Shown: positions 1 to 33,960 of the stretch, one piece after another
How positions within the stretch are numbered: position 1 is the first letter of the stretch
Layout: every line of letters starts with the position of its first letter
Source: Pyrus communis
Taxonomy: Eukaryota; Streptophyta; Magnoliopsida; Rosales; Rosaceae
DNA length: 64,000 bases
Assembly: GCF_963583255.1 (NCBI RefSeq)
Contig: NC_084803.1
Coordinates: 19,045,428 to 19,109,427, forward strand
Reading direction: 5' to 3'
The notes under the pieces: model-generated
Told to the model about the DNA's origin: nothing
Seen by the model: the letters and a program-made list of their open reading frames with translations, nothing else
The model's database searches: none
Position numbers and translations under genes: made by a program

Positions 1-2523
1 CATCTCGAACTCGGTTGCTAGGTAACCTTTGAGCCTTGAGATTTCCTCTTTGTCATCACCCGTAACAATCATATCGTCCACATAGATGATAAGTGCCGTC
101 AATTTCCCCATTCGACGTTTCAAGAAAAAGTGTATGATCAGAATTGCTCTGCCTGAACCCATATTTCCTCATAGCCGTTCGAAACCTCCCAAACCATGCT
201 TGAGGTGATTGTTTCAACCCATACAACGCTTTATTCAACTTGCACACTACTCCGGGTTGTAAAACCAATGCATAACTAGGTGGAATATCTATATACACTT
301 CTTCTTTAAGATTACCATGTAAGAAAGAATTTTTCACATCAAATTGCTGTAATGGCCAATCTAAGTTGGCCGCCAATGAAAGCAATATTCTTACCGTATT
401 AATCTTGGCTAGTGGGGCAAATGTCTCTGTATAATCAACACCATACATCTGAGTGTATCCCTTGGCCACCAATCATGCTTTGTATCATTCAACAGACCCA
501 TTAGCTTTGTACTTGATGGTGTACACCCATCGACACCCAACTCTCTTCTTTCCTTGGGGAAGTGGAACTAAATCCCACATTTGATTTTTCTGGAGTGCAA
601 CCATTTCTTCCTCCATTGCCTTGGTCCATCGATCGTTAGATAGTGCCTCTTTCAATGAACTTGGTGTGCTATCATTGGATATTTGTTGTACAAAAGCTTT
701 GTCGGGTTCTGATAACTTCTGTGATGACACATAGTTGGCAATGAGGTATTTAGAGCCTTTCGTTGTGTCCGGTGAATATCGATTGGGTAGCTTTGCCCGG
801 TTGTGCCTGAAAGGTAATTGATAATTCAGAACAACGGTATCATCAACAAGGATAATAAAGCATACCTCAGGAATATTCTCAGAAGTAAGGCCATCTAGTG
901 GTACTATATTTGGAGATGAAGGGGGAGTAGTATCAGTAGAAGTATCAAAGTTGACAAGTGGCAGCACTGTTGCCGTGGGTGAGGACGGCATTGCCGTGCC
1001 TGCCGTTGATTTTATGGGCAGCACTACGGTTGCTGTTGGCTGAGCTGGTAACGCAGCCGCTATAGGCTCGGCTAGTGGCAGCGGAAGATCAATACTATCA
1101 TTCCAATCCTTCTCATTATGATGTCTCTTCCCCTAATGAGGAGGATTGGAAGAATCTGAAGGGTAATACATCTCAAAATCGGAAAAAGTGACATCCATAG
1201 TAACATACATTCGATAGGAAGGAGGGTGGTAACAACGGTACCCTTTTTTATGGAGTTCGTACCCCATAAAAATACAACGGAGAGCAAACGGTTCAAGTTT
1301 CGTCCATTGATTTTTATGAAGATGAACAAATGCAACACATCCAAAAACCCGAGGTGGGAGTACCAAAATCGACGGTAGATGCCCAAAAGTAGCAAGGACT
1401 TGTAAGGGAGTAAGAAAATTCAGGGCTTTGGATGGCAGACGGTTGATAAGATAAGTGGCGGTTTGAAGAGCAACATCCCAAGAAGAACGGGGAACAGACG
1501 CACCAATCAAGAGTGAGCGAGCCGTTTCTAAGAGATGACGATTTTGCGCTCAGCCACCCCGTTCTGTTGAGAAGTTTGAGGACAAGTAGTTTCGTGAAGA
1601 ATTCTGTGATTAGTTAAATAATGGAGAAATTCATTATTAACATATTCACCATCGTTATCAAAACGCAAAATCCGTATTGTAGTAGAAAACGGTGTCTGAA
1701 CCATGGTGTGGAAGGTCTTAAAAGCTGAAAAAACACATCATCTGTGTGCAATCGTCTATGAATGTTACAAACCATCGAATACCAGATGAAGTAGTAATTG
1801 GAGATGGTCCCTAAACATCCGAATGAATAAGACCAAAAGGAATAACACTTTTATTAGAATTCAGCGGATAAGAAACATGGTGACTCTTGGCGAGAATGCA
1901 AGTGTCACATTTAAAGTCTGAAACTGAACAACCAACAAATAAATCTGGAAACATATGCTGCAAATAACTGAAAGATGGATGACCCAAACGGTGATGCCAT
2001 AACAATGTCTCTTGTGATCAACAGCTCCTTGGGCGAGAGTGACCCGTCTTGTACTGGCATCATCCACAAAATAGAGATCCCCCATCTTAGTACCACGACC
2101 AATTATCTCATTCGTGAGAATATCCTGTATAAGACAAAACTTTGGATACATTAGCACACAACAGTTCAATTGTTCAGTAGCTTGGCCAGGAGACATCAAT
2201 TTATGATTTAGTGAAGGTACAAGTAATGTATGAGGCAAAGAGAGAGTGGGCGTAAGGCGCACGGTGCCAGCACCAGTTACCGGTGAGGTGACTCCATTAG
2301 CATTAGTAATACTACGTCGGAGTGGAACAGTATCACAAGCTAAATCAGTGGGATCATAAGTCATATGGTCTGTGCCACCAGAGTCAATGATCCATCCGGA
2401 TGGAGTAACATCACTATTCATATTAAAAACATAACCACAGTTACCTGAGGACTCCGGAGACATGTCGGAAGAACTTGAAACCGAAGGAGGATCATCTTGA
2501 GATATCAAAGATAATTGGGACAT
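1..2523 (-). pseudogene. pol of copia copy 1 (protease, integrase, partial RT), broken
   Basis: Protease is near 2330-2400 with an intact DSG active-site triad (WIIDSG). The HHCC pre-integrase motif (HHRLGHPS) sits in another frame near 1960-2005. The integrase core continues to about 1390, followed by a long Pro/Ser/Thr-rich linker. RT begins near 600 (MWDLVPLP, then CRWVYTIK) and reaches the window edge. A frameshift before HHRLGHPS and another in RT near 110 are shared with the copy at 8145-11926, so they predate the separation of the two copies. Confidence 0.9.
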
Positions 2524-2539
2524 AGAGGTGGCAAGATTG

Positions 2540-3660
2540 GCTTGCCCAAGCTTGGCTTACTTGTCTCGTTCCTGTTGTTTTTGAAGCTTCAACGGTTCCC
2601 ACCAGTCAGGATAGCCATGCAATTGGAAGCAACTATCACGACCATGCTTCTCACTATCGTAGTAAGTACAACCACCAGCCGGGATTAGTGGTTTAGGACG
2701 AGGAGGACGGGGACCCATGATGGGCCGTGAGGCCGGCCTAGCAGCAAAAAACAAGCCCTGTGCTAGGCTCGGGGCAGTAGTCTGGGGTTACAGTCTTGGG
2801 CTCAGTGCAAGTAACTTATCGGGGGCACGAGGACAAGGTGGAGCTACAGCTCGTGTGGCAGGCCGAGCCACCATGGCTGCCCCACTTAGCAGCTGTCCTT
2901 CGATATTCATCACAGCTTGTCGCATTCCCTCCCGGCAAACATAGGCAAAAGTTTGTTCGACGGAAGGAAGGGGCTCAGTTCGTAGAATATCACTATGAAT
3001 TTTATCAAACATCTTATCCAATCCTGCAAGCAAAGTGTACACACGATCCGTTTGAACTATTTTATTAAAAATTTCAATATCAGTACCGCACTTCATCGGA
3101 TTAGGTCAACGATAATCAATCTCCTGCCACAAAGATTGAAGATCACTATAGTATGTCTCCACTGGTCATCCATCTTGCCTCATGCGAGAGGCCTTGCAGG
3201 TAAGATCATAGACTTGAGATATATCGGAGCCGTCATAATACGTGTGAACAACCGCATCCCACACTTATTTTGCTGTCAGTAGTCGAAGAAAGTACCCAAT
3301 CAAATTGGGTTCCATAGAGTTGATGAGTCAACCCTTCACAATAGCGTTCTCTGTACAACATTTGGTGAAGGCCAGATCGTCAATAGGTGGTTGGGGATTA
3401 CTCCCAAACAAGTAGCCCAACTTGTCTTTTCCAGCAACAAACATCTTAACAATCTGAGACCAAACTCCATAATTGGCACCATTAAGTTTGATGCCAATCG
3501 AAGCAATAGACGAATCATGATGGACAATCTGTGTAACAACTTGCGGTATAGGTAGGGTAGGATTCATGGTAGGGTCGATTAGGGTAGTAGTGTTTAGTGT
3601 AGGAGTAGAATCGATTAGGATGTGGTTGTTTCCACCGTGGAGTGGTGGTAGGTTTTCCAT
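2540..3660 (-). pseudogene. gag of copia copy 1, broken
   Basis: The start codon at 3660 lies about 50 bases inside the primer site. The first 110 residues are open and include the conserved copia gag stretch with NYGVW (UBN2-type domain). The frame breaks near 3328 and resumes in pieces (2788-3096). A CCHC-like region rich in Pro precedes the GYPDWW motif near 2600. The frameshifts mean no complete nucleocapsid protein can be made. Confidence 0.85.
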
Positions 3661-3710
3661 GGGAGGGCCGAGTTTGTTTGAGGGAACGGGCAGAGCAGAA
3701 ATCCTAGGAT

Positions 3711-3726
3711 CTCTGCTTTGATACCA
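3711..3726 (-). promoter_or_regulatory. Primer binding site of copia copy 1
   Basis: Immediately inside the LTR the minus strand reads TGGTATCAAAGCAGAG, close to the TGGTATCAGAGC complement of plant initiator tRNA-Met used by many copia elements. Confidence 0.85.
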
Positions 3727-3912
3727 TGCTAATTAGAGCTTATCTTTGGGGCTTAATTTTCTGATATCATTCTTCTCACCAAGGAGGAAAATATATAATG
3801 TACAAGAGTGATTTACAAGGAAAGAAATAAACATCAAATAACCTAATTACAATCTGATCATAAGGACTCAAAAAGGTAACTAAACTAATTATAAAATGTC
3901 AACTCTCCAACA
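3727..3912 (-). repeat. 5' LTR of copia copy 1 (186 bp)
   Basis: On the minus strand it begins TGTTGGAGAG and ends TTAGCA, the canonical TG..CA ends. It has the same length as the 3' LTR at 11741-11926. The five bases outside it (3913-3917) read CCGTG on the minus strand, the target duplication. Confidence 0.95.
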
Positions 3913-3964
3913 CACGGATGTAGTCATTATCTACCAAACTGACCAAAAAGTAGCTGCTTTGCAC
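3913..3964 (-). pseudogene. MTHFR: MTHFR last exon, 5' part, interrupted by copia
   Basis: On the minus strand a splice acceptor (TTTTGCAG) at 3965 is followed by an open stretch encoding VQSSYFLVSLVDNDYI, the conserved C-terminus of plant methylenetetrahydrofolate reductase. The reading stops at the copia LTR (3912). The missing last codons are found at 11927-11954 on the opposite strand, after the 3' LTR of the other copia copy. MTHFR normally makes 5-methyltetrahydrofolate for methionine synthesis; this copy is a relic. Confidence 0.85.
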
Positions 3965-4267
3965 CTGCAAAAGTTGAGAACAAGATCGTGTCAATATTAC
4001 TAACTTAATTTCCATCGAAAGGTCGAGTGGAAAGGTGTCTAGGGTGGGGGGTCTCTGTGTAGTAAGCATACATTTCAACAATCAAATCATAAATATGTTA
4101 ACAATCAAAATCATAAATATGCTAATATGCAAGAAGAGACATTTCAACAATCAAATCATAAGTATTAAAGGTTTTTTATATGTAGCTCTTGGGACGATTA
4201 GCCCTACCATCAATTGCCAGGACGATTAGATATTTTCTTACGGGTGTATGTGTATTTGGGGGAGCAG
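3965..4267. other. Remnant intron or deleted part of MTHFR
   Basis: AT-rich sequence between the MTHFR internal fragment and its last exon. A short repeat (CAATCAAATCATAA-type) occurs three times at 4078-4160. No coding match was seen. Confidence 0.5.
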
Positions 4268-4800
4268 TTGTGTTGCATACCAGAAAATTGGACGAACATC
4301 TTCTTTAACACGGAATACATTTGCAGGGCGTCTCCAAGGTAATGGCCTTGATTTGGATTCTTCAATCAGATCAAGATTCTGCCAAAGTAGTTAGTACAAT
4401 TGTAAGGGGAACATATTTGGTGGTAAGTTTTAATCAAACAACTCATATTATTTTGATGTACATCTGAAGTCAAGTCAAACAGAAGAAGAAATATATGAAA
4501 ACAAAACCGTTAATATAGCCAATGCAGATTTTCTCCATGTTGAGAGCATAAAGACGCAATGTCCTAATACCATGAGCCAAAATCTTCTTGCACATCTCGG
4601 TTCCAAGGTGAATTCCGTATAATCTGACAGCTTCTTCATTGTCCTTGATAGGCTTCAAGGCAGCAGTAACCTTGGTTGGTATCTACAGTGTGCTATTTTC
4701 TTGTTTGTAAAGTGGGGTATGGAACCCTCGTAGTTATTAATGGGCATAATTCCAGGAACAATGGGACGAGTAATTCCAATTTGGCTACAGTTTTCCTCTC
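4268..4800 (-). pseudogene. MTHFR: MTHFR internal exon fragments
   Basis: Minus-strand segments match the MTHFR catalytic domain in order: QIGITRPIVPGIMPINNYEG (about 4735-4790), then [20 protein letters not shown] and [20 protein letters not shown] (4530-4660), then, after an apparent intron, [19 protein letters not shown] and KEDVRPIFW (4290-4380). The region between the first two is degenerate and out of frame. Most of the roughly 590-residue protein is absent: upstream sequence gives way to a repeat at 4800, and only about 300 bases separate this piece from the last exon. It is a truncated, internally deleted pseudogene. Confidence 0.85.
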
Positions 4801-5240
4801 GTAGGAGGCCTGCAAGTGATGAAAAAGCGAAAACAGAAAATGGACATTGTAACGCAATGTCTGAATCCAAAAATAAAAACAGATCAGGAAGCGGACACTA
4901 CGTTGAAGTGTCTGAATTCAAATATAAAGGGAAGCATGTAGTAGGCATGTGAATGATGAAAAAAAAATAATAATAAAATCAGGAAATGGACATAACAATG
5001 CAGCATTTGAATCCAACTATAAAAAACAGAATAAGAAAACGGACACTGCACGTGTTGATCTATTCCAAAATATAAAAAGTATGAGCAAGGAGGTGTCAAT
5101 TGAAGTGGGTGCTAGTTGTAGTGGCAAATTTTATAATTTTTTTCTTTTATAATTTAAATGCAAAATCACCCTAAATATAAAACAGTTGAGGGCCAACACT
5201 GCACTGCCGTATCTAACTATATCTTTATGTTAGGTTATTT
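4800..5240 (-). repeat. Repeat of palindromic modules, copy 1
   Basis: Four diverged modules each carry an imperfect palindrome of the form GACACTG-n5-CAGTGTC followed by TGAATCCAAA-type sequence (near 4843, 4894, 4988 and 5040). Read on the minus strand, the whole stretch aligns with 14331-14895, so the two copies lie in opposite orientation. It ends at 5240 in TATCTTTATG and an AT-rich tail shared with the other copy. There is no coding capacity. It is probably part of a non-autonomous transposon. Confidence 0.75.
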
Positions 5241-5822
5241 ATTTATTTTTTGAAAAATGGTAAAGTCCAAATAAAATTCTTAAGGACAGAGGAAAACTCC
5301 AAAAAAACTTTTAATGTATCAAAAGTGAAAGTACATGACTTTTCATTTGAGTAGACTAAAGAGAGACGCTTTCTTTTTCCTTTCCATGTTTAGTACGGGT
5401 TTCGTTTTAGAGGACTGTGAATAGTCAGAGTCATGTCAAATGACGTGTCTTGGTCGGTTGGTCTCCTATGTCTAAAATCAAAACAGCTGCGTTTCCCATG
5501 TTAATGAAAAATGACAAATTGTAGCTCGTGTCAAAAGATTAACCAACGGTTCAACATCCAGCTTAGAATTTGACATGAGCCTACAACTTGTCTATTTCAT
5601 AAACTGTATAGCCAGCTATTCGGATTTGGACATTGGCGGCCAACCTAAACTAATTAACCGACCAATGAAAACTAGAGGACTTTTACTTTTGAACAAATAC
5701 CCGTTGGTAAAGTTCCTACCTTTTGTGTCGCTCCATTAAAATATGAGTTTTATTGTCAACAGTTCTTATTGGTGCGTGATTTGTAAAAACTTTTATAAAT
5801 CCATACCAGTGGCAGTTGGCAG

Positions 5823-6015
5823 TTAAGTGACACATGTAAATCTTTCCAGCTCGGGATTGTGGGTATATCCTGACACTGGTGGTGAGAATAACCAATCTCT
5901 CCTAAACTTTATAGTTAACACAAATTCATCAATCAATTCATGTGCCAACCCTAAACAACCGGTTTTTGCATATAAATCAATCAAGGCAGTCTGTATGAAA
6001 AGGTTTTGCTCAAAC
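5823..6015 (-). pseudogene. PPR protein fragment (segment A)
   Basis: Minus-strand codons give FEQNLFIQTALIDLYAKTGC followed by LGLAHELIDE, a pentatricopeptide repeat helix pair. The upstream half of the repeat is replaced at 6016 by unrelated sequence from the other side of the deletion. The better preserved copy is at 15690-16110. PPR proteins bind organellar RNA; this is only a scrap. Confidence 0.75.
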
Positions 6016-7449
6016 CCAGTTGTACCAAGTGGCTCAACCTTTTTAAACATTCCAAACAAGTACCCAACCTTTTTAACTAGGGATTTGTCTACAAAATTAA
6101 TAGAAGGTCATGGAAGCATGGCCTCCACCAACTAATGTCACCACCACCCCCATCATGCCATCACCTCCAAACCCAATGCACAAGTACCAATTCCACCCTC
6201 AAACTCAGGCCTCCAACATCGAGAAGAAGGTCATGGTGCTTTCTGAAATGTTATGGACTGTCATGATGCAGTCATCACCATCTTCACGCCCACAAAGAAA
6301 AACTAAAAGCTTTACCAGCCAAAAATCGGCAAGTGAGGAAATCACATGAGCAAAATAAGCTCCTTGAAACCCTATCTGAATTCTTAACCCTGTTATTTGT
6401 TGGGAGATTGCCCTCCTAATGTAATTTCAATTTAGGTCCATTTTTTATTCAATTCATTACCGTTTGATCATTGGGTTCTATATTATACCATCTATGTTTG
6501 AAATTTAGATTTTGAGGCAACTAGTATTAATGTTGATCATGATATACCCAGTTGGTGAGTTTGGAATATAAAGGTTGGGATGGGGATTTGGTGGTCGTAG
6601 GTTGAGCTTGGACGTGGCAGGAGCTTGATATTTCCCAATCTTCATTTTTGTTTTCTATTGTATTTGTAAATTTGTTTTTTTTTTTTTTTTTCATCTTCAT
6701 ATCTTTTCTGAAGTTATTTTTATTATTATTTTAGTGTCCATATAAGTTAAAAAGTGGGATTCATTGTTGCCACATACACATTTAATGAAAAAATTAACTG
6801 GGGCTTAACGGATATGACATTTTCAATAGATTGAGTACTTATTTGGAATGTTTAAAAAAGTTGGGACCAATAAAAGATTGAGGGTCGTAGGTATTTAATC
6901 TAAAAAGTAGAATTTGTATTTTTCAAGGGAGAAAATAAAAGGAATCTCAATATTGATGCAAAATGCCAAAATATGTTTTTAAATAACAAAAAGCTACTAA
7001 ATACGTCTTTAGTCTAATAAGTGGTATTTATATCTAATATTGGAAGACCTCTCAACTGTGGATACTAAGGAATCAGAATCAAAACCTAACTTCTCAAGAG
7101 AAACTACATTACAATTTATCTTTTATAAACTACATCAGTTTTTCATTTTACTCCCTGCTAGCCTGGCCTTGTGGTCCTTAACCGGATTGAATCTTTCCAA
7201 AACTTGGCTGGAAGTCCTTGCTGAGGTATTTGAAATGGGTCGTAATGAACCCCCACCCCCCACCACGGGACCTTACCACTTCTCACCTGCAGCAGATTAA
7301 GCCCTATCAATTTCAAGATTTGAGTTTTTTTTTTTTGATGATAATGTTATTGAGTTAAATAACTTAAATTGTTAGTTGTTGAGATGAAAGGTAGGAGGAT
7401 CAGTGGGGATTGAACCCGACTGATGAGAAAAATATACATACGGTCGTAC

Positions 7450-7817
7450 CTGAACTTGTTAACAAGATGGATAAAAATAAGCACTTCTAGCTTGGCAACT
7501 TCATTTCCTGGACAGGTATGAAGGCCATTTCCAAATGGTATGAACGTGTTGGGTTTTACTCCAAGCTGTAATGCAATAAATCAAACCCAATTAATTAATT
7601 AGAAGCTCATTAGATTTTCAAATTTTACATGTTTAAACAATGAAGAATTGAAAGTATATTGATAAAGTAAACTGCAATTAGGGTTATGTGAACCCTTCCA
7701 TATATTACCTCAAATCTTGATGGATCGAATTTATGCGGATAAAAAAAAAATTCAGGATTATGATGAATGTTCCGAAACAAAGGCACTACTTTCCATCCCT
7801 ATGGGACCAAGTATCCT
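7450..7817 (-). pseudogene. CYP707A-like P450 fragment, two 3' exons (segment A)
   Basis: Exon 7450-7565 (minus) encodes the heme-binding region, with PFGNGLHTCPGNE including the Cys ligand, flanked by a CATTACAG acceptor and a GTACG donor. Exon about 7711-7817 carries the IPKGWKVVPL-type region, but the segment matching [10 protein letters not shown] is mutated to a run of A. One His codon of the HH pair is lost in frame relative to 21051-21169. All upstream exons are absent, because the duplicated segment ends in the next intron at 8144. Confidence 0.85.
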
Positions 7818-8252
7818 GTTGGACATGACAAAGGCAACTCAGTTAAATTAACATTTTCATATATAGCTAGGGCTTATTTCTTAATTTTCATTGTTTTTTC
7901 CTGCAAGGTGAACTTGTTCACTTAAGTTTCCCTTCGGAACTAACATTTTCATAGCCAGGGTATGAAAAGAACTGAGTTTGTGTGGCCTTTTATTAGAGTG
8001 GGGTTCTTTGAAATATGGGTCACTAGCTAGTCAGTGTACACTACCAGTACTATACAAAGGGCAAAGTGAGTTGGATCTTTCCCTTTCCAGGCGATATTAT
8101 TTATGTTTGTGCTATCAATCTCCAACAGTAAAGCTAGCCCTTCTCGTCCTAAACCACCCGTCCCGGCTGGTGGTTGTACTTACTACGGTAGTGAGAAGCA
8201 TGGCCATGATAATTACTTCTAATTACATGGCTATCCTGACTAGTGGGAACCG

Positions 8253-11200
8253 TTGAAGCTTCAGAAGCAACAGGAACGAGACAAGCAAGCCAATCTCGCC
8301 ACCTCCATGTCCCAATTATCTTTGATATCTCAAGATGATCCTCCTCCGGTTTCAAGTTCTTCCGACATGTCTCCGGAGTCCTCAGGTAACTATGGTTATG
8401 TTTTTAATATGAATAGTGATGTTACACGATTCGGATAGATCATTGACTTCGGTGCCACAAACCATATGACTTATGATCCCATTGATTTAGCTTGTGATAC
8501 TGTTCCACTCCGATGTAGTATTACTAATGCTAATGGAGTCACCTCACCGATAACTGGCGCTGGCACCGTGCGCCTCACGCCCTCTCTCTCTTTGCCTCAT
8601 ACATTACTTGTACCTTCACTAAATCATAAATTGATGTCTCCTGGCCAAGCTACTGAACAATTGAACTGTTGTGTGCTAATGTATCCAAAGTTTTGTCTTA
8701 TACAGGATATTCTCACGAATGAGATAATTGGTCGTGGTACTAAGATGGGGGATCTCTATTTTGTGGATGATGTCAGTACAGGATGGGTCACTCTCGCCCA
8801 AGGAGCTGTTGATCACAAGAGACATTGTTATGGCATCACCGTTTGGGTCATCCATCTTTCAGTTATTTGCAGCATATGTTTCCGGATTTATTTGTTGGTT
8901 GTTCAGTTTTTAGACTTTAAATGTGACACTTGCATACTCGCCAAGAGTCACCGTGTTTCTTATCCGCTGAATTCTAATAAAAGTGTTATTCCTTTTGGTC
9001 TTGTTCATTCGGATGTTTGGGGACCATCTCCAATTACTACTTCATCTGGTATTCGATGGTTTGTAACATTCATAGACGATTGCACACAGATGACGTGGTT
9101 ATATCTTCTTAAGCATAAAAGTGATGTTTTTTTGGCTTTTAAGACCTTCCACACCATGGTTCAGACACCGTTTTCTACTACAATACGGATTTTGCGTTCC
9201 GATAACGGTGGTGAATATGTTAATAATGAATTTTCCCATTATTTAACTAATCACGGAATTCTTCACGAAACTACTTGTCCTCAGACTCCTCAACAGAACG
9301 GGGTGGCTGAGCGCAAAAATCGTCATCTCTTAGAAACGGCTCGCTCACTCTTGATTGGCGCGTCTGTTCCCCGTTCTTCTTGGGATGTTGCTCCTCAAAC
9401 TGCCACTTATCTTATCAACCGTCTGCCATCCAAAGTCCTGGATTTTCTTACTCCCTTACAAGTCCTTGCTACTTTCGTGCATCTATCGTCGATTTTGGTA
9501 CTCCCACCTCGGTTTTTTGGATGTGTTGCATTTGTTCATCTTCATAAAAATCAAGGGACGAAACTTGAACCGTGTGCTTTCCGTTGTATTTTTATGGGGT
9601 ACGAACTCCATCAAAAAGGGTACCGTTGTTTCCATCCTCCTTCCCGTCGAATGTATGTTACTATGGATGTCACTTTTTCTGAGTCTGAGATGTATTACCC
9701 TTCAGATTTTTCCAATCATCCTCATCAGGGCAAGACACATCATAATGAGAAGGATTGGAATGATAGTATTGATCTTCCGCTGCCACTAGCCGAGCCTATA
9801 GCGGCTGTGTTACCAGCTCAGCCAACATCAGCCGTAGTGCTACCCATAGAATCAATGGCAGGCACGGCAATGTCGTCCTCACCCACGGCAACAGTGCTGC
9901 CACTTGTCAACTTTGATACTTCTACTGATACTACTCCCCCCTCATCTCCAAATATAGTACCACTAGATGACCTTACTCATGAGAATATTCCTGAGGTATG
10001 CTTTACTATCCCTGTTGATGATACCGTTGTTTTGAATTATCAATTACCTTTCAGGCACAACCGGGGAAAGCCACCCAATCGATATTCACCGGACACAACG
10101 AAAGGCTCTAAATACCTCATTGCCAACTATGTGTCATCACAGAAGTTATTAGAACCCGGCAAAGCTTTTGTACAACAAATATCCAATGATAGCATACCAA
10201 GTTCATTGAAGGAGGCACTATCTGACGATCGATGGACCAAGGCAATGGAGGAAGAAATGGCTACACTCTAGAAAAATCAAACGTGGGATTTAGTTCCACT
10301 TCCTCAAGGAAAGAAGAGAGTTGGGTGTCGATGGGTGAACACCATCAAGTACAAAGCTGATGGGTCTGTTGAACGATACAAAGCACGATTGGTGGTCAAG
10401 GGATACACTCAGATGTATGCTGTTGATTATACAAAGACATTTGCCCCGGTAGCCAAGATTAATACGGTAAGAGTATTACTTTCATTGGCGGCCAACTTAG
10501 ATTGGCCATTACAACAATTTGATGTGAAAAATTCTTTCTTACATGGTAATCTTAAAGAAGAAGTGTATATGGATATTCCACCTGGTTATGCATCGGTTTT
10601 ACAACCCGGAGTAGTGTGCAAGTTGAATAAAGCGTTGTATGGGTTGAAACAATCACCTCGAGCATGGTTTGGGAGGTTTCGGACGACTATGAGGAAATAT
10701 GGGTTCATGCAGAGCAATTCTGATCATACACTTTTTCTTGAAACGTCGAATGGGGAAATTGACGGCACTTATCATCTATGTGGACGATATGATTGTTACG
10801 GGTGATGACAAAGAGGAAATCTCAAGGCTCAAAGATTACCTAGCAACCAAGTTCGAGATGAAAGATCTAGGTGGTTTGAAATATTTCTTGGGGATAGAAG
10901 TCGCTCGATCTAAACAGGGTATATTTCTGTCTCAAAGAAAATATGTTCTAGACTTATTAACCGAAACCAGAATGCTTGATTGTAAACCGGCTGACACCCC
11001 TATAGTCCAAAATCACCACCTTGCCATGTACCCTGATCAAGTTCCCACTAACAGATATCGTTATCAAAGGTTAGTTGGGAGGTCAATTTATTTATCTCAC
11101 ACCAGGCCTGATATTGCATACGCAGTAAGTGTTGTTAGTCAATTTTTGCATTCTCTGAGTGAGGCACATATGGGTGCAGTTGAATGCATCCTACGATACC

Positions 11201-11733
11201 TGAAGTCCTCACCAGGTAGAGGCATTATGTTTTCCAAGAATGATCATTGTCGAATAGAGGGTTACACCGATGCAGATTGGGCAGGCAACGTTACTGATCG
11301 TCGGTCCACATCTGGTTACTTTACATTTGTGGGAGTAAACTTAGTGACTTGGCGAAGTAAGAAACAGAAAGTGGTTGCTTTATCAAGTGCAGAGGCGGAA
11401 TACAGGGGTATGACAAAAGGAGTATGTGAACTATTATGGCTTCGGAGGTTATTTGGTGAACTCGGGTATTCTTCGAATTCAGCCTCAGATTTATTTTGTG
11501 ATAATAAAGCAGCTATCGATATCTCACACAACCCAATTCAACATGATCGCACAAAGCACGTGGAAGTTGACAGACACTTCATTAAGGAGAAGTTGGATGG
11601 GAATATTATTCAATTCCTGTTTGTAAAGTCAGAGGATCAATTAGCGGATATCTTAACTAAAGCTATTGGAAGTCAAGCGTTCGACAACTCTCTTGTCAAG
11701 TTGGGCATGAACGACATTTATGCACCAACTTGA
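8253..11733 (+). pseudogene. copia copy 2 pol: protease, integrase, RT, RNase H, broken
   Basis: A TAG at 8437 replaces the Trp codon before the protease, and the active-site triad reads DFG instead of DSG. From 8466 a 601-codon frame is open. A frameshift near 8820, compensated near 8910, garbles the HHRLGHPS zinc motif. The integrase core (FIDDCTQMTW, SDNGGEY, ERKNRHLLETARSLL) is intact. A TAG at 10269 interrupts the RT entry. RT resumes, shifts frame near 10745 before YVDDMIVTGDD, then runs open through RNase H (ADWAGNVTDRRSTSGY, SSAEAEYR, DNKAAI) to 11733. It is dead as an autonomous element. Confidence 0.93.
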
Positions 11734-11740
11734 GGGGGAG
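11732..11740 (+). promoter_or_regulatory. Polypurine tract of copia copy 2
   Basis: GAGGGGGAG lies directly before the 3' LTR and overlaps the stop codon of pol, the normal position for the plus-strand primer. Confidence 0.85.
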
Positions 11741-11926
11741 TGTTGGAGAGTTGACCTTTTGTAATTAGTTTAGTTACCTTTTTGAGTCCTTATAATCAGA
11801 TTTTAATTAGGTTATTTGATGTTAATTTCTTTCCTTGTAAATCACTCTTGCACATTATATATTTTCCTCCTTGGTGAGAAGAATGATATCAGAAAATTAA
11901 GCCCCAAAGATAAGCTCTAATTAGCA
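11741..11926 (+). repeat. 3' LTR of copia copy 2 (186 bp)
   Basis: TGTTGGAGAG..TTAGCA ends. Same length as the LTR at 3727-3912, with six base differences (about 3%). Followed by the CCGTG target duplication (11927-11931). Confidence 0.95.
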
Positions 11927-11954
11927 CCGTGGTGATATTTTTGTTGATTTCTGA
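11927..11954 (+). pseudogene. MTHFR: Last codons of the copia-split MTHFR pseudogene
   Basis: Directly after the LTR the sequence CCGTGGTGATAT continues the reading frame that stops at 3913 on the other strand. With one CCGTG copy removed, NDYI is followed by R-G-D-I-F-V-D-F and TGA, close to the usual plant MTHFR end (NDYI-x-GD-hydrophobic-F). The sequence after 11954 is then the expected 3' untranslated region. The two halves of one exon are thus 8 kb apart and inverted. Confidence 0.8.
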
Positions 11955-12606
11955 ATGAGTTTTTTTGTCAACTCTTCCATTTCTTAAATCCCTTAAAAGT
12001 GGTGCTTTCGTTCCAAGTTGGATTATAAATTTAATGTCATTAACTTGTGTAATAATACCTCATTGGGATTTTTGATGTCCACCCTGTTTCATGCTACAAA
12101 TTGCATCTGCATTCGTGATTGATCAGTGCACCGGCATATATCATACTTCCACAGTGGATGGCTTAATGGATATGATCTAGTTTGTTGTTGTTTCGCTTTT
12201 CGTATGTAGTTGTGGCAATGTAATCTTTTTATTAATATATTTTATCTCCGCTCCTACATTGTTCTACTCGAAAGCCTCATCCAATCCTTCATTATTAAAA
12301 AAGAAAAATTGTTGTGAACTGTGTGGTAGGAGGAAGAAATGCACATGGAATGACATAAAATGTTAACCAAGACAGGAAAAAGACAACCTACTCAAAATTG
12401 TTTAGTTTTGTTTTCATGTTGTGTACGATTCCATCTGCATTTGTTCCGTATCCTACCCGTCACCTTTCCTATATCCTTATTCATCCCTCCCGTTTCATGT
12501 AAGCCTCTATTTCTAGCAAGAAAATAAAGACTAAAAACTAAAAATCTATTAGCTTCATTTTCCTTATAGCTTAATTGACTTTACCCATCACCTTTCCTAT
12601 ATTATT
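11955..12606. other. MTHFR 3' flank and unassigned AT-rich DNA
   Basis: The first 100-200 bases are probably former MTHFR 3' untranslated sequence. The rest is AT-rich with no coding match or terminal repeats that I can see. Confidence 0.5.
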
Positions 12607-13590
12607 GAGATGGTCCACACTATTTCTGGAACTATAACAAAATGACTCACACTATTTATGAAACTTAATCAAAATAACTCACACTATTTCTGGAACTATA
12701 ACAAAATGACTCACACTATTTATGAAACTTAATCAAAATAACACTATCGCAAACTAACCCACACTATTTCTGGAATTGTAACAAAATAACCCGCACTATT
12801 TATGAAACTGAATGAAAATAACCCACACTATTTTTAGAACTATAACAAAATAACCCACACTATTTATGAAATAGAATCAAAATAATGCACACTATTTCTA
12901 AAACTATAACAAAATAACTCACAATGTTTATAAAACTAAGCCAAAATAACTCACACTATTTATGAAACTATCGCAAACTAACCCACACTATTTATGGAAT
13001 AATAACAAAATAACGCACACTATTTATGAACCTGAATCAAAATAACTCACTATTTATGAAACTGAATCAAAATAACTCACTATTTATGAAACTGAATCAA
13101 AATAGCCCACATTATTTCTGGAACTATTGCAAACTAAACCACACTATTTCTGGAACTATAACAAAATAATTCACACTATTTATGAAACTGAATAAAAATA
13201 ACCTGCATTATTTCTGGAACTATAACAAAATAACCCACACTATTTATGAAACTAAATCAAAATAACCCACATTATTTTTGGAACTATAACAAAATAATTC
13301 ATACTATTTATGAAACTGAACCAAAGTAAGCCACACTATTTCTGGAAATATAGCAAGATAACCTGCATTATTTAAAACTAAACCAAAATAACTCACACTA
13401 TATTTGGAATTATAACAAAATAACTCGCACTATTTATGAAATTGAACCAAAATAACCCACACTATTTCTAGGACTATAGCAAAATAACCCACACTATTTA
13501 TGAAACTAAACCAAAATAACCTACACTATTTCTGAAACTATAGCAAAATAACCCATATTATTTATGAAACTGAATCAAAATAACTCACAT
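12607..13590 (+). repeat. 32-bp minisatellite with alternating monomers
   Basis: About 30 tandem units of 32 bp in two alternating types: CCCACACTATTTCTGGAAC.. and CCCACACTATTTATGAAAC.., both ending in CAAAATAA. They form a 64-bp higher-order unit. Units diverge by point changes and a few have small deletions. There is no open frame. Spacing is exact and there are no unique spacers, so this is a satellite and not a CRISPR-like array. Confidence 0.95.
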
Positions 13591-14330
13591 TTTTTTTTAA
13601 ATTTTATATAATATAATTAATTCCAAAATAAACTTTAAATTGTGAAAGTTATTGAACTAGGTATAAGAGTGATCATAAAAATGACCAACAGCTGCAAAAC
13701 CTCTGCAACCATATTCACTTGTTGAGGAATTTGATGAAGAAGATGCCAAATGTCTTGTATGACTGAAGCAAATCTCTATGGAATCTGAACATGTTTCTTT
13801 ATGCGGGTTTCCGGGAGGGGGTTGCCCATTCAGATGGGTAGGCGGGGCCCACTGGTTGTCCAGCTCGAGTTTACACCGCCACGTAGATATGCTGAGTTTA
13901 TCGCTGGCTTCGCTAAAATGGTGTTGGCGCGGCACAGCAAGTGGTTGACAGCGCAGCCTTTCTCATGCGAGTTTCCGTTTTCGCCTCAACGAGAGCTTGT
14001 CACGTGCACTCAACGGAAATAAGTCTTTTTTGGAGTTTTCCTCCGTCCTTACCTTGGATGACACCTTTGGATAGCATGAAATGTTGGTTGTCAACGTGTC
14101 GAAATCAACTGGCACGGGTTCGCCGTCAGATTGATGTCATGCTATCGTGGGGTGACTCAAAGTTACGAATAAATTCCAAACTCATATTTCACATAGTACA
14201 TCTCGGGTTCAATTTTTGAGCTAGTGAATCGTACAATGGCGACCATGGAGAGGCTAAAATGTCTCTGAGTCTTCTCGACTCCTGAAAAGGTGGACTGCAG
14301 TGACGAAAACACCAACTGGTCCCCTTTTTC
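13591..14330. other. No recognised gene; GC-richer patch
   Basis: 13790-14330 is more GC-rich than its surroundings. It has short open frames on both strands (minus 13657-13935, plus 13801-14022), but neither matches a family I know and neither has clear splice or start context. It may be an exon remnant. Confidence 0.4.
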
Positions 14331-14895
14331 TAAAAAAAATAAATAAATAACATAAAGATATAGTTAGATACTGTAGTGCAGTGTTGGCCCTCAAATGTAT
14401 TCTTATTTAGGGTGATTTTCCATTTAAAATATAAAAAAAATTACAAAATCTGTCACTACAACTGGCACCCACTTTAATTGACACTCAATTTCTCATACTT
14501 TTTTATATTTTGGAATAGGTCAACACGTGCAATGTCTATTTTCTGATTTTGTTTTTTACATTTGCATTTAGACGCTGCATTGCAGTGTCCATTTCATGAT
14601 TTCGTTTTTTTTCATCATTCACACGCCTACTAGATACTTGTTTTTATATTTGGATTCAGACACTTCAACGCAGTGTCCTCTTCCTAATCTATTTTTTATT
14701 TTTGGATTCAGACACTGCGTTACAGTGTCCATTTTCTGTTTTCGCTTTTTCATCACTTACACGCCTCCTACAAGCTATTTTTACATTTGAATTCAGACAC
14801 TGTACTGCAATGGTCGTTTTTTGGGTTTGTTTTTTACCTTCGGATTCAGACACTCACAAGCTAAAAATACGATTTTGCCTCATTTAAAAAAAAAA
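14331..14895 (+). repeat. Repeat of palindromic modules, copy 2
   Basis: Begins in an AAATAAATAAATAA tract and ATAAAGATATAGTTAG, then modules each with TTGGATTCAGACACTG..CAGTGTCC-type inverted repeats (about 14570, 14655, 14707, 14795, a partial one at 14848). A longer module with CTTTTTCATCACTTACACGC alternates with a shorter one. It is the reverse of 4800-5240. Non-coding. Confidence 0.8.
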
Positions 14896-15180
14896 AAAAA
14901 TTGCTTCTGAAAGATAAGTTTTAGTTATGGGCCATATACTCTACAAATAATCTTCTCAGCATAAGAGAATGATCGAACAACTATGTACACTCTCCTCGTT
15001 AAAGAGAAGAGTGACCACAACCAAAGATGAAGAAGGATATGATGAAGTAGACAAAAATAGTGTTGAAGTATGAATTAGACATGAGTTTAATCGTTATAGT
15101 GTACAAACACAAGACAATACTTTAAAGGCTCGTTTGATACATATAGTTAGATAGGAATGGAGAACTTCCCAATTGTATGT
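14896..15180. other. Unassigned DNA before duplicated segment B
   Basis: No gene or repeat recognised. Homology with segment A starts at 15181. Confidence 0.4.
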
Positions 15181-15882
15181 ATGTATCAAAAGTGAAAGTA
15201 CATGACTTTTCATTTGAGTAGACTAAAGAGAGACGCTTTCTTTTTCCTTTCCATGTTTAGTACGGGTTTCGTTTTAGAGGACTGCGAATGGTCAGAGTCA
15301 GGTCAAATGACGTGTCTTGGTCGGTTGGTCTCCTATGTCTAAAATCCAAACAGCTGCCTTTCCCATGTTAATGACAAATGACAAATTGTAGCTCGTGTCA
15401 AAAGATTAACCAACGGTTCAACATCCAGCTTAGAATTTGACATGAGCCTACAACTTGTCTATTTCATAAACTGTATAGCCAGCTATTCGGATTTGGACAT
15501 TGGCAACCAACCTAAACTAATTAACCGACCAATGAAAACTAGAGGACTTTTACTTTTGAACAAATAACCGTTGGTAAAGTTCCTACCTTTTGTGTCGCTC
15601 CATTAAAATATGAGTTTTATTGTCAACAGTTCTCGTTGGTGCATGATTTGTAAAATCTTTTATAAATCCATACCGGTGGCAGTTGGTAGTTAAGTGCCAC
15701 ATGTAAATCTTTTCAGCTCGAGGTTGTGGGTATATCCTGACACTGGTGGTGAGAATAACCAATCTCTCCTAAACTTTATAGTTAACACAAATTCATCAAT
15801 CAATTCATGTGCCAACCCTAAACAACCGGTTTTTGCATATAAATCAATCAAGGCAGTCTGTATGAAAAGGTTTTGCTCAAAC
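15181..15882. repeat. Duplicated segment B (left block)
   Basis: Near-identical to 5318-6015. Here the sequence continues without a break into PPR coding sequence to the right, so this locus keeps the original arrangement and segment A carries the deletion. Confidence 0.9.
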
Positions 15883-16110
15883 ACTGCTCTGATCACAACA
15901 CAATGAACCTCTTTGCCAGACCTAATCGCAGCGAGAGCCGCGCACGCCTTGATGAGGAATGGAAACGTGAAGTCATCAGAAGGGCAACCGGAAGCCCGGG
16001 AATGCAGGTTGACATACAAGAGGTCATGGTAGAAGCCGTGATTGCTAAGGTACCGGATTACCAGGTTCTGCAGGCCAAGCCCTGGCCTTTGGATTTGTTG
16101 GAGAGAGAGA
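15690..16110 (-). pseudogene. PPR protein remnant
   Basis: Minus strand, open from about 16110 to 15690. It encodes SNHGFYHDLLYVNLHS, then DDFTFPFLIKACAALAAIRS, GKEVHCVVIRA and FEQNLFIQTALIDLYAKTGC, typical consecutive pentatricopeptide repeats of a plant PLS/P-type protein. The 5' side meets a GA microsatellite (16096-16120) and no further repeats follow; the 3' side ends after about 330 codon-bases. Genuine PPR proteins have 400 or more residues, so this is a fragment. No ATG lies in frame at its 5' end. Confidence 0.8.
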
Positions 16111-16120
16111 GAGAGAGAGA

Positions 16121-17051
16121 GATGATATTTTATGAGTGCAAATATGAGAACCCAGATGAAAAACTGGACCTAACGAATTGGTCTACCAGAAAAAAAATCC
16201 TTAACAAGTCCTTGTACTATGAGAAGGAGGTGAGAGGCTTCGTGTCCTCGCACGTTTTGCAGAGTTTTAGTTGACGGAGGAAGTGGGTGGTTTTGGAGTT
16301 GATTGAATAATGTTTGTGTCTGACAAGAGAGAGAATTAACGGAGAAGAAGAAAGAGTATTGGATAGGCGGAGGAAGGAACTCATTACTCCATTAAGACTC
16401 TGAGATTGGAGCCCAAAGCTAGCCGTTAAGATTTGTATTTGGTCATCTGGGCTAACCTACTTTGGTCATCTGGGCAAACGGTCTAGCTCAACTGGCTCAA
16501 CCAACATGTGCAAAGGAAACGAGATACAACATGAGCCCTATAACAAAACCGACAATTGTCAACAGAAAATGATCTCCGAATATTTTGTAACCTAAAAAGT
16601 TTTAAGAGAATTTTTATTAACGCTCCAAAAATGCCATGCAACACCATTCTCTTCCTTTTTACACAGAAGTCGAGACAAGATGATATTTTATGAGTGCAAA
16701 TATCAGCTTCATTATATATTTGAGACTCGAGGTTAGCACAAGCAACGAGTGAGAAAGCGGAAATGAGTTACAATTACGGTGAGTCAAAACTTCGATTCCT
16801 TCCATTGTAACCAAAACAATAGTAATACCATCAATCATAATTAGCATTTTTCATGAACTAACATTTAAAATTTTACATAGTACCACCACCACACTCAACA
16901 CTAGGCACCATAGTTATGTTTAAGATTTACCATACTACAAAACATTCTCAAAGCAAAACGAAAAGGCTTTTGTTTAAAGTTATAAATCACACAATAATTC
17001 TACATGGATCACGACCTCGACATCACGCAGAAGGCTAAAAGCTTACAAGTT
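16121..17051. other. Centrin 3' flank, no other gene
   Basis: AT-rich. A 24-base string (GATGATATTTTATGAG..) occurs twice, at 16119 and 16679, suggesting a small local duplication. The part next to 17051 is presumably the centrin 3' untranslated region. Confidence 0.5.
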
Positions 17052-18714
17052 CTAATACCCGTATGCTGTTCTCTTCATCATCCTGATAAACTCATCAGCA
17101 TTAACTTCTCCATCACCTGTATATTTCAAGCCATAACCTCTAGGATCAGCGAAATTATAATCAACGATTACAAAGCAGTGGCACACAGGAGAAAAAGGTT
17201 GATGGCATCAAAAGGGGGGTGGTTTATCTTTTGATGATGGTTTATATATATTTATGCACTTACGATCTCGGTCTGCTTCCTCAATCATCTCTTGGATCTC
17301 TCTGTCAGTGAAGTTCTCACCCAGATCCTTTGCAATGTTTTTAATGTCTGCAGCAGATATCTTTCCCTGGATTCAAATCCGGAAAGAATGGGGTTAAGTA
17401 TTGACAGACTGAAACAACACAAGTATTTGAATTTAAGTATTCCAAACTGAAACAAAACTAATATTGAATAAGCAAAACAATACATTGCGATCTAGGTCGA
17501 TGAGCTGGAATGCTTTCATGAGTTCCTCCTTTGTGTCCCGTTCTCCAATTTTGGCTGTCATCATGTGTGCAAACTCATCAAAGTCGATAGCACCACTTCC
17601 ATCCTTGTCAACATCTGCAATCATTTGATTAATTTGCTGCAAAGAAACAACAGAGCAACATGTTAGCCATTCAGTCAACGTACCAAATATTGAATAACAA
17701 ATAGAAAGAAAATTACTAGGAATCTCAAGAAATTCAAATGATAAATATGTTCACCTCTTAACATACTATTAGTTTGTAATGAGGTTCCAGAGAACATGGC
17801 AAAAATGAAACAGCAAAAGCTAAACGTGTAGAAAAATCAACAGATAATCTAGAGGGCCAGAAAATAGAGACGCGCCTAACCATTTAGAGCCAAGCAAACA
17901 TACGGAAAAACTTAATTCCCAATCGGAAAATATTACTCAGTCTCACCACCAGGTTTTAATTTAAAGTTTTAAACCGTACACAGACAAATTAGAGATAATA
18001 ACATACGCAATACAATTTTAGGAAAACCATATTCAAACACACAAACACAAGCTTAACAAGTGAATGTATGTAGACGGTAAGTTACCTCTTCGGTCATCTC
18101 AAAACCGAGAGCCCTGTCACGAAAAAAATAAACAATCAGCTGTAAACATTTAGATGACTAAACAAATAATTAATCACAAAGCATGAGTTAAGAACTCATA
18201 CCTCATGGCAACATTCAGTTCCTTGGCATCAATGGTGCCTAAACAACACAATATGATCAACATAAAAAACCATGAATTTAATCAAACATTCTTATACAAA
18301 AAATGTAAGCCAATGACATCAAACCCTTCAAAAAATCTTAATCAAAATCGTAACTTTGCAGTACCTGAGCCATCGGTGTCGAATAACTCGAATGCCTCCT
18401 TAATCTCTTGCCTCTTTTGTTGAGTTAACCCATGATGTCTCCCTCTGGGTTTCTCCTTCCTAGATGCCCCTCTGTAAAGGCTAGTCTATCAACCCATTAC
18501 CAAATTCAGACAAACCAAGTCAATCAAAACCCTACCCAGCAACCAAAATCTATCAAATTGAAAGACCCATATCCATATTTTTCAAATTCCATCAATCGAT
18601 CAAATTAAATCGTTCAAAGTATGCAATTTTACCAAATAAGATTAACCAAAAAATGAGCTAAAGATGTTAAAAGATTGAAAATTGAGCTGGAAATTGCATT
18701 GAGAAGTATACCAT
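17052..18714 (-). CDS. CEN: Centrin (caltractin), 7 exons
   Basis: Exons on the minus strand: 18712-18714, 18365-18485, 18202-18238, 18086-18113, 17484-17636, 17264-17366, 17052-17116. All introns are GT..AG, total 510 bases including the stop, giving 169 residues, the usual centrin length. The protein starts [13 protein letters not shown]. It has four EF-hand loops: D37-E48 (DTDGSGTIDAKE), D73-E84 ([12 protein letters not shown]), D110-D121 (DLDRNGKISAAD) and D146-E157 ([12 protein letters not shown]). It ends KRTAYGY. Centrins are calmodulin-like calcium sensors linked to microtubule organisation and, in plants, nucleotide excision repair. The first coding exon holds only the ATG. The frame is intact with no odd residues. 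The duplicate locus at 5318-8144 has lost this gene. Confidence 0.96.
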
Positions 18715-19103
18715 TTAGCGACGCGTGAAGTATGAAAGTCGAAGAAAGTGTCTTTTATCTGGAGGAATTTGATGTTTCTTCGCCCGGAAGCTCTGAGGAG
18801 GTCACTGTTTGCAAATCAAATTTGGGAAGGGAATTTGGGTGTTTTGATACACCGACCGATTGGGCCAGGAAATTAATTTTTTAACGCGCCTAGTTGTAAA
18901 CTAGTAAGGTCAACTGACATTTTGGAGTTGACGGGTCGGGCCAGGTTTTACTCCAGTTTTAATGGGCTCAATATCATCATTATTTTATGTTTCCTCTTCT
19001 TTTACGGTGTGCTCTTTTATCTCTGTGCACGATCGAAATCCCAGTCATATAATAAAATTAAGTACCTATTTTTAGTGTCATTCTAAATTTGTCGCAACCT
19101 ATT
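18715..19103. other. Centrin 5' leader and promoter region
   Basis: The stretch upstream of the ATG (18715 to about 18800) should be the leader. I see no convincing TATA box. No other gene. Confidence 0.5.
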
Positions 19104-19252
19104 TTTTTGTTCTCTGTTTTTTGAACAAAAGATAGTATAGTGCTAGCGGAGTAGGCTAAGCTTCGCATTGGACTAGCTATAATAATACGGTTCAAATTCA
19201 TCTTTGGTAAGAATCGAACCTAAGACCTCTTAAGGAATATCACTAGATCGTA
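19104..19252 (-). mobile_element. tRNA-derived SINE (copy 1)
   Basis: On the minus strand, TACGATCTAGTGATATTCC (A-box-like region) is followed by CTTAGGTTCGATTCTTACC (B box GGTTCGATTC), a body ending in GCTAGCACTATACTATC and an A-rich tail. It matches the SINE at 62940-63106 but lacks about 15 bases between the boxes. Its 5' end at 19252 coincides with the start of the block shared with segment A. Confidence 0.8.
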
Positions 19253-21747: not shown

Positions 21748-22215
21748 ATTGTCCTTTGTCACGGCTCCGAGAAGAACTTATTCGTAGTGGGGATACCACC
21801 CCTCTATATTGCTACATCTTTGACGTGATGAGAGATTTATATACAAAAGGGCGGTATTTATGTTGCTTGTAGTTCCTTTGGTAAAAGAATTAATCAGATG
21901 ATCATTAAACCTACCTTTGTATTCAACATCTTCGACAGCTTCCCTAAAGGTGAATGAAATAATGCTTGCCATCCTCAAGCTCTCCTTCATAGCCTGCGAC
22001 AGAAATTCCAGTTTAGTTTCTCATTGACTTCGATACATTTTTGAAGAAGAATTTATTTGAGAAAGTCTTATAGGAACTACGGTTGTATACTAATGTTTTA
22101 TGTTTAATCAATAATGTAAAAATGTATCAAGTGAAAATCAGTGACAAATATGGATCCCACAGATGATCAACTGCGACCTATGATCATTTTATTATTGGTT
22201 TGTGTGGTACTACAT

Positions 22216-32838: not shown

Positions 32839-33584
32839 ATGACCACTGGTGCAGGTACGAATTGGTCGCTTATTGAAGATGTTGCGTTGTGTACTAGCTG
32901 GGTTGAAGTTACTCATAGTTCGCTTACGGGTAATGAGATGCAGTTGCGAGAAATGTGGAGTCTTATTCATACCAATTTTCTTGAGAAAATTGGTGGGAAA
33001 AGAACCAAAGAATCGATGTCCAGTCGTTGGAAATTACTTAGCCAATCGTTTAGTACGTGGAGAGACGCTTTGGCACAAGCTAGTAGTAATATTCGAAGTG
33101 GGGAAAATTACTCGGATCAGGTAACAATATATTATTTATTTGATACCCAAATTTACATTATAATTATTTGTTTGAATTATTTATTTGTTACATACTTACA
33201 TTATAATTATTTGTTTGTATTATTTATTTGTTACGTACAAAATTTATTATTTATTGTTACTTATTTGTTACATTATAATTATGTTGTTTGTATTATTTAT
33301 TTATTTGTTTGTTTGTATTATTTATTTACTAAACTTGGAACTCTAGCCCCATGTTATGATTAACATGACATATATATATATATATATATTTGCTAGTTAC
33401 TTATTTTCATTATTTACTAAACTTGAAGCCTTCTTACTTATTTTCATTATATTTGTTACTTATATATATATATATGTATATATTTGCTAGTTACTTATTT
33501 TCATTATAATTATTTATTTGTTACTTATTTTCATTATTTACTAAACTTGAAGCCTTCTTACTTATTTTCATTATATTTGTTACT

Positions 33585-33617
<33 letters not shown>

Positions 33618-33960
33618 TTGCTAGTTACTTATTTTCATTATAATTATTTATTTGTTACTTATTTTCAATATTTACTAAACTTGAAGCCTTCTTACTTATT
33701 TTCATTATATTTGTTACTTATATATATATGTATATATTTGCTAGTTTCTTATTTTCATTATAATTATTTATTTGTTACTTATTTTCAATATTTACTAAAC
33801 TTGAAGCCTTCTTACTTATTTTCATTATATTTGTTACTTATATATATATATATGTATATATTTGCTAGTTACTTATTTTCATTATAATTATTTATTTGTT
33901 ACTTATTTTCATTATTTACTAAACTTGAAGCCTTCTTACTTATTTTCATTATATTTGTTA

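What the first reader, a model, noticed from the sequence alone, without database searches (positions are those of the whole stretch)
1..11954. A copia-mediated inversion that splits one MTHFR exon between two strands
The 5' LTR of copia copy 1 (ending 3912) abuts the MTHFR C-terminal exon at NDYI. The 3' LTR of the oppositely oriented copy 2 (ending 11926) abuts the exact continuation of that exon, ending in TGA at 11954. Both junctions carry the same 5-bp sequence, CCGTG in element orientation. One copia insertion therefore made both junctions. The simplest account is later recombination between this element and an inverted second copy, flipping 3913-8144 and exchanging the element halves. 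A chance match of five bases plus continuation of an exon frame is very unlikely.
Basis: partly seen in the sequence, partly recalled or inferred. Interest (0 to 1): 0.85.

Follow-up and report, generated by a model that had tools for sequence, protein, structure and literature searches.

The report
Inverted duplication around a copia insertion
In an apple-tribe genome, a dead gene fragment carrying one jumping-gene insertion was copied backwards into its own neighbourhood, and this makes the interrupted exon look as if an inversion had split it between two strands.

Summary
The observed junctions are real. The 5' LTR of copy 1 (ending 3912) meets the MTHFR last exon at NDYI. The 3' LTR of copy 2 (ending 11926) meets the rest of that exon. 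Both junctions carry CCGTG, so both descend from one copia insertion.

The inversion account fails its own test. DNA left of the window shows that copy 1's 3' LTR is also followed by CCGTG and the end of the same exon, on the same strand. Copy 1 is a complete insertion in an unsplit exon. Copy 2 with its exon end is an extra, backward copy.

The inverted match runs on past the element on both sides (-4057..2702 versus 8143..15178). Two direct copies of a cytochrome P450 block lie at 5314-8144 and 15181-21747. Segment order is A-N-P, then A inverted, then P again. This is the DUP-NML-INV/DUP architecture known from human genomic disorders. Transversion rates are homogeneous across segments (p = 0.72), so one event is the simplest reading, most likely replication with two template switches. 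The MTHFR copy is a pseudogene; a full-length MTHFR-like gene lies about 10 Mb away. A new member of a known kind, of modest interest.

The parts
1..2702 (-). Segment A, original copy (part inside the window; it continues left to -4057, contig C1:19041370): 3' part of copia copy 1. Left of the window follow its 3' LTR (-1047..-862), a second CCGTG, the MTHFR exon end and its downstream DNA
   Evidence: inner end read
2703..5313 (-). Segment N, present once: 5' 1.2 kb of copia copy 1, MTHFR pseudogene exons, and a repeat piece (4801-5260)
   Evidence: No second copy in the window plus 20 kb to its left, apart from the older 4801-5260 repeat and the LTR; genome-wide, 3900-4200 gave two matches, itself and the full-length MTHFR-like gene at 82%
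3727..3912 (-). 5' LTR of copia copy 1
3913..3917 (-). Target-site duplication CCGTG; its partner lies directly after copy 1's 3' LTR, left of the window (-1052..-1048)
3913..3964 (-). MTHFR last exon, 5' part (VQSSYFLVSLVDNDYIR)
4170..4795 (-). Other MTHFR pseudogene exons (about residues 207-333 plus a vestige of the next exon, to residue 342); residues from there to about 564 have no match
   Evidence: Pfam PF02219 and, weakly, PF21895
5314..8144 (-). Segment P, left copy: degenerate P450 exons; lacks 3.37 kb that the right copy has
8143..8145 (.). Junction J1: P450 intron joined to copia interior (2 bp identical; 6 of 8 bases alike)
8143..15178 (+). Segment A, inverted copy: copia copy 2 without its 5' 1.2 kb, MTHFR exon end and downstream DNA
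11741..11926 (+). 3' LTR of copia copy 2 (a duplicate of copy 1's 3' LTR)
11927..11954 (+). CCGTG and the end of the MTHFR exon ((R)GDIFVDF-stop), duplicate of the one left of the window
15174..15186 (.). Junction J2: outer end of the inverted A copy (15178) joined to the start of P (15181), with two bases (GT) between; both parents have TGTAT at the break
15181..21747 (-). Segment P, right copy, continuous with the P450 exon at 21900-22020 and with an open PPR-like reading frame across 15882

Best explanation
A single copia element X inserted in the last exon of an already broken MTHFR copy, next to a P450 gene, making CCGTG repeats on both sides. Later one complex duplication took place. Replication (or repair synthesis) that had passed through A-N-P stopped inside a P450 intron and switched to the opposite strand inside X. 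It copied X's 3' part, the MTHFR exon end and 3.25 kb beyond it backwards, then switched back to the start of P and went on. The result is A-N-P / A-inverted / P: two duplicated segments on either side of a single-copy segment, one of them inverted between two direct copies of the other. Copy 2 and its exon end are by-products of that copying. Shown: the architecture, the TSD on both sides of copy 1, and transversion rates that do not differ between segments. Inferred: the replicative mechanism and that it was one event.
For: Copy 1 is flanked on both sides by CCGTG inside one MTHFR exon. The inverted match extends beyond both elements over -4057..2702 and 8143..15178, 285 differences at 6736 aligned sites. 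P is a direct repeat whose left copy keeps its link to N and whose right copy keeps its link to the next P450 exon, so only two new joins, J1 and J2, are needed. Transversions are 59 of 5919 sites in A (tandem array left out; 72 of 6736 with it) and 32 of 2792 in P, Fisher p = 0.57 and 0.75; heterogeneity over 10 sections p = 0.72. Between the copia internal region and P, transitions differ significantly only in CHG context (p = 0.005; CG p = 1.0, CHH p = 0.33), which fits methylation of the element. Differences between the copia copies show no excess at third codon positions (40/50/32 over 850 codons in pieces with a clear frame; 40/51/33 over 893), as for two copies of one dead element. The two 3' LTRs agree against the 5' LTR at 4 of 8 variable sites. 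The parents share 2 bp at J1 and TGTAT at J2.
Against: J1's exact identity is only 2 bp, and J2 holds two bases (or two GTAT units) that neither parent explains directly, so the join signatures are weak and fit end joining as well; no chance control was run for them. Total substitution (transitions included) differs between sections (1.5% to 5.8%, p = 0.0001), which I put down to methylation but did not prove. The LTR tree rests on 4 against 2 and 2 sites. No unrearranged allele or homoeologous locus could be examined: genome searches for it did not complete (last try).
Confidence: 0.7

Rival explanations
1. One reading: an independent, truncated second copia copy recombined with X and inverted 3913-8144, exchanging element halves.
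For: Opposite orientation and CCGTG at both junctions.
Against: Copy 1's 3' flank is CCGTG plus the exon end on the same strand. The inverted identity runs 3.0-3.25 kb beyond the element ends. It would also need a separate P duplication that happens to end exactly at the element's truncation point.
Confidence: 0.02
2. Duplication as above but in the alternative order (A truncated / P-N-A all inverted / P), followed by one homologous flip between the two inverted arms that gave the present order.
For: The arms are long and differ at 285 of 6736 aligned sites, a good substrate for flips; PMC6902434 names both orders as possible structures (passages).
Against: Needs one more event; the present order needs none. 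Not testable without other genomes.
Confidence: 0.12
3. Several separate break-and-join events (for example a tandem duplication, then an inversion with a deletion) made the same order without replicative switching.
For: J1 has 2 bp of exact identity and J2 has extra bases; end joining is common in plants (recalled).
Against: Needs several events of about the same age; transversion rates are homogeneous.
Confidence: 0.1
4. Assembly error, for instance two haplotypes joined head to tail.
For: P copies differ by 3.0%, a value that haplotypes of an outcrossing tree could also show (inference).
Against: No N in the window or in the fetched stretches. The copies differ by structure as well as by substitutions (3.37-kb deletion, 349-bp insertion, array length). 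The sequences joined at J1 and J2 are alike over only a few bases, not over long overlaps.
Confidence: 0.06

Closest known systems
DUP-NML-INV/DUP complex rearrangements (human PLP1 and similar loci; MMBIR/FoSTeS)
   Same: Two duplicated segments separated by a copy-neutral one; the proximal segment can lie inverted between two direct copies of the distal one (PMC6902434, passages). Joins there often show microhomology (2-9 bp) or imperfect microhomeology; PMC2621351 (passages) gives 2-5 bp.
   Different: Kilobase scale (2.6-7 kb segments), plant, found in an assembly rather than de novo; join signatures here are weak.
Inversion by ectopic recombination between inverted LTR retrotransposons
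   Same: Opposite copia copies around an interval.
   Different: Flanks are not exchanged: copy 1 keeps matching target-site duplications, and the match extends beyond the elements.
Ty1/copia LTR retrotransposon
   Same: 186-bp LTRs TG...CA, 5-bp TSD, integrase before reverse transcriptase.
   Different: Both copies have broken reading frames; copy 2 lacks its 5' LTR and leader.

Membership tests
DUP-NML-INV/DUP complex rearrangement | Two duplicated segments separated by a single-copy segment | tested here: met
   A and P twice, N once, within the window plus 20 kb to its left; genome-wide only 301 bases of N were tested
DUP-NML-INV/DUP complex rearrangement | One duplicated segment inverted between direct copies of the other | tested here: met
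DUP-NML-INV/DUP complex rearrangement | Microhomology or microhomeology at both joins | tested here: inconclusive
   J1 2 bp exact, 6 of 8 alike; J2 TGTAT shared but with extra bases at the join; no control for chance was run
DUP-NML-INV/DUP complex rearrangement | Segments arose in one event | tested here: inconclusive
   Transversion rates do not differ, p = 0.57 and 0.72: consistent, not proof; total substitutions do differ (p = 0.0001)
DUP-NML-INV/DUP complex rearrangement | Replicative origin | not testable with these tools
   Inference from architecture
Inversion by recombination between inverted copia copies | Flanks exchanged, so that each element has unlike flanks | tested here: not met
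   Copy 1 has CCGTG and the same exon on both sides
Inversion by recombination between inverted copia copies | Homology between the two loci confined to the element | tested here: not met
   Identity continues 3.0-3.25 kb beyond
Ty1/copia LTR retrotransposon | LTRs with TG...CA ends and 5-bp target-site duplication | tested here: met
Ty1/copia LTR retrotransposon | copia-type gag, integrase, then RVT_2 reverse transcriptase | tested here: met
   PF14244 on copy 1; PF00665 followed by PF07727 on copy 2

The most novel reading that the evidence does not exclude
The inverted arms (about 6.8 and 7.0 kb) around the 5.4-kb core recombine from time to time, so that the core stands in both orientations in wild populations: a flip-flop started by the duplication. 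A further reading not excluded is that transcripts across the arms make small RNAs that reach the full-length MTHFR-like gene, whose downstream DNA is 87% alike over 155 bases.
Probability: 0.12. Interest if true: 0.45.

Novelty: new member of a known kind. Interest (0 to 1): 0.25.

Why it matters
It shows how an inverted segmental duplication that contains a transposon can imitate a transposon-mediated inversion: matching target-site duplications on 'exchanged' halves and a split exon are not enough to prove an inversion unless the outer flanks are read. It is also a base-resolved plant example of a rearrangement class that the papers I saw describe in human patients; one library search for the class name together with Arabidopsis found no paper, which is a narrow test.

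Tried and rejected
1. Inversion by recombination between two independent copia insertions: rejected by the left flank.

2. Dating the two copia copies by total divergence: set aside, because transitions in likely methylated contexts inflate it; transversions and contexts were compared instead.

3. Shared frame-breaking lesions in the pol region of both copies, seen in the translations and against a related apple protein, were first taken as the main sign of one dead ancestor. A defective parent element could explain them too, so I give them little weight. The flank beyond the elements settles the point.

4. My early idea that J2 lies in a terminal repeat of a small transposon with 10 bp of identity (not reported in a call) was dropped when the left parent sequence was read. 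J2 instead lies at the inner edge of a 187-bp inverted repeat.

5. Search for an unrearranged homoeologous locus: not answered.

6. Paper searches: none of the titles listed is about this locus. I read passages of three papers and only the listing for the others.

P starts at 5314 and A ends at 2702. The join at J2 has extra bases rather than a clean overlap. The insert in the right P copy is 349 bp. In one search the last 40 or so of 893 codons were counted in a frame that is probably not the coding one; without them the counts are 40/50/32 over 850 codons, p = 0.14 against equal shares. Confidence in the best explanation was lowered from 0.8 to 0.7 because of J2 and so that the odds add up to one.
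Full report
Numbers below 1 count bases left of the window; window base x is contig C1 position 19045427 + x, and the window is C1:19045428-19109427 of a 487-Mb, 29-contig assembly. The host is of the apple tribe: a red chlorophyll catabolite reductase exon at 38980-39585 is 98% identical to a Malus baccata protein.

OBSERVATION. The coordinates given are right. The 5' LTR of copy 1 (3727-3912, minus strand) abuts CCGTG and the MTHFR last exon at NDYI. The 3' LTR of copy 2 (11741-11926) abuts CCGTG and the remainder of the exon, with TGA at 11952-11954. The full-length MTHFR-like gene of the same genome, at about C1:8.91 Mb, has the same exon uninterrupted, VDNDYINGDVFAVFADF-stop; whether that gene works was not tested. 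The window's version lacks three of those residues. It belongs to a pseudogene that keeps residues about 207-342 in pieces and the last exon, with no match between. DNA downstream of the stop at 11954 matches DNA downstream of the full-length gene in order. So the exon identity is not chance.

WHAT THE FINDING MISSED INSIDE THE WINDOW. A self-comparison showed that the interval between the two copia copies is itself a partial repeat: 5314-8144 is a direct copy of 15181-21747 (pieces 97.3%, 96.5% and 97.6% identical over 702, 1272 and 818 aligned sites). This block P holds P450 exons (Pfam PF00067). The left copy of P ends exactly where truncated copia copy 2 begins (8143-8145). The right copy runs on into the next P450 exon at 21900-22020. 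In the right copy a PPR-like reading frame (Pfam PPR_2 at E 0.002, below its cut-off) is open across 15882; in the left copy 3.37 kb there are missing and a few bases of filler stand instead. The right copy carries an extra 349-bp insert (20524-20872) between TAA repeats. The right copy therefore looks like the ancestral P450 side.

THE DECISIVE STRETCH. I fetched 20 kb left of the window. Copy 1's 3' LTR lies at -1047..-862. Read on the minus strand it is followed by CCGTG and then ATGATATTTTTGTTGATTTCTGA, the same exon end. Copy 1 is a complete insertion with matching target-site duplications in an unsplit exon. The inverted match does not stop at the elements: -4057..2702 matches 8143..15178 (the alignment was made from 2706 and 8139, four bases further in), with 285 differences at 6736 aligned sites and nine gaps of 8 bases or more. 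It ends 3.25 kb beyond copy 2's LTR.

ARCHITECTURE. Call A = -4057..2702, N = 2703..5313, P = 5314..8144. The order is A, N, P, A inverted (8143-15178), P again (15181-21747), then further P450 sequence. A and P are double, N is single, apart from an older dispersed repeat at 4801-5260 and the LTR. Genome-wide, the 301 bases at 3900-4200 gave two matches: themselves and the full-length MTHFR-like gene at 82%. The left copy of P keeps its link to N and the right copy keeps its link to the next P450 exon, so only two new joins are needed. J1 (8144) joins a P450 intron to copia interior, with 2 identical bases and 6 of 8 alike. At J2, A ends at 15178 and P begins at 15181 with GT between; both parents have TGTAT at the break, and the join reads as three GTAT units, so slippage is another way to see it. 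J2 lies at the inner edge of a 187-bp inverted repeat (13835-14021 against -4240..-4055), a place where a fork could stall (inference).

ONE EVENT? Transversions are 59 of 5919 sites in A with the 32-bp tandem array left out, 72 of 6736 with it, and 32 of 2792 in P: Fisher p = 0.57 and 0.75. Over 10 sections heterogeneity has p = 0.72. Against this, all substitutions together are heterogeneous (1.5% to 5.8%, p = 0.0001). Between the copia internal region and P, transitions differ significantly only in CHG context (p = 0.005; CG p = 1.0, CHH p = 0.33), which fits methylation of the element (known biology, not tested here). The copia copies differ without third-position excess (40/50/32 at codon positions 1/2/3 over 850 codons, p = 0.14 against equal shares; pN/pS 0.85, which included about 40 codons in a doubtful frame), as expected for two copies of one dead element. 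The 5' LTR of copy 1 differs from the 3' LTR of copy 2 at 6 of 186 sites, against 4.8 expected at copia rates and 4.4 at block rates. The three LTRs split 4/2/2, favouring the two 3' LTRs as closest; these are few sites. Both copies share frame-breaking lesions in the pol region. That fits one dead ancestor, but a defective parent would do as well.

MECHANISM. The same order, a proximal duplicated segment inverted between two direct copies of the distal one, is named as one of the structures of DUP-NML-INV/DUP in PMC6902434 (passages read), where template switching with microhomology or imperfect microhomeology is proposed. The MMBIR paper PMC2621351 (passages read) describes inverted duplications with 2-5 bp microhomology, and a second inverted switch that restores a viable chromosome. 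I think two template switches in one replicative event are most likely here (about 0.65 for the mechanism, 0.95 for the architecture). The join signatures are weak: 2 bp at J1, extra bases at J2. A plant review (PMC12073271, passages read) lists FoSTeS as a source of copy-number change; the word 'inverted' was not found in its main text. One search for the class name with Arabidopsis gave 0 papers.

WHAT REMAINS OPEN. Assembly error is unlikely: no N in the window or in fetched stretches, and the copies differ in structure. Reads were not available. An unrearranged homoeologous locus was sought, but the search tool did not complete (last try).

VERDICT. Real junctions; inversion interpretation refuted by its own test; an inverted segmental duplication of known architecture in a plant genome.

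Noticed in passing
15883-19249 against 6016-6018: 3.37 kb with a PPR-like reading frame across its edge are present in the right P copy and missing from the left, where a few bases of filler stand instead: probably a later deletion.
   Followed up: partly
20524-20872: 349-bp insert with inverted ends (GGTCTGGTTTGGTA / TACCAAACCAGCCC) between TAA repeats in the right P copy only; looks like a small Harbinger-type element (label recalled).
   Followed up: partly
12591-13620: 32-bp tandem array; the copy left of the window is about 200 bases shorter, so array length has changed since the duplication.
   Followed up: partly
13835-14021 and -4240..-4055 (L003): 187-bp inverted repeat whose inner edge coincides, within two bases, with the end of the duplicated segment (J2).
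   Followed up: partly
4801-5260 and 14322-14771: Older inverted repeat pair (88% identical at aligned sites) on either side of the MTHFR pieces, with a further match at -3652..-3197 left of the window; family not identified.
   Followed up: no
about 22300-26057, minus strand: A further copia-like element (extent by eye) just upstream of the P450 exon at 21900-22020 of the right copy (one search hit at 24476-24883; ORFs).
   Followed up: no
57421-58391, minus strand: Degenerate copia fragment with 39-54% identity to the apple relative of copies 1 and 2.
   Followed up: no
33379-34185 and 56288-56938: Tandem repeats with units of about 120-135 and 325 bp.
   Followed up: no
35264-36676, minus strand: Open 470-aa frame that resembles a HARBI1-type nuclease (label recalled, not searched).
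   Followed up: no
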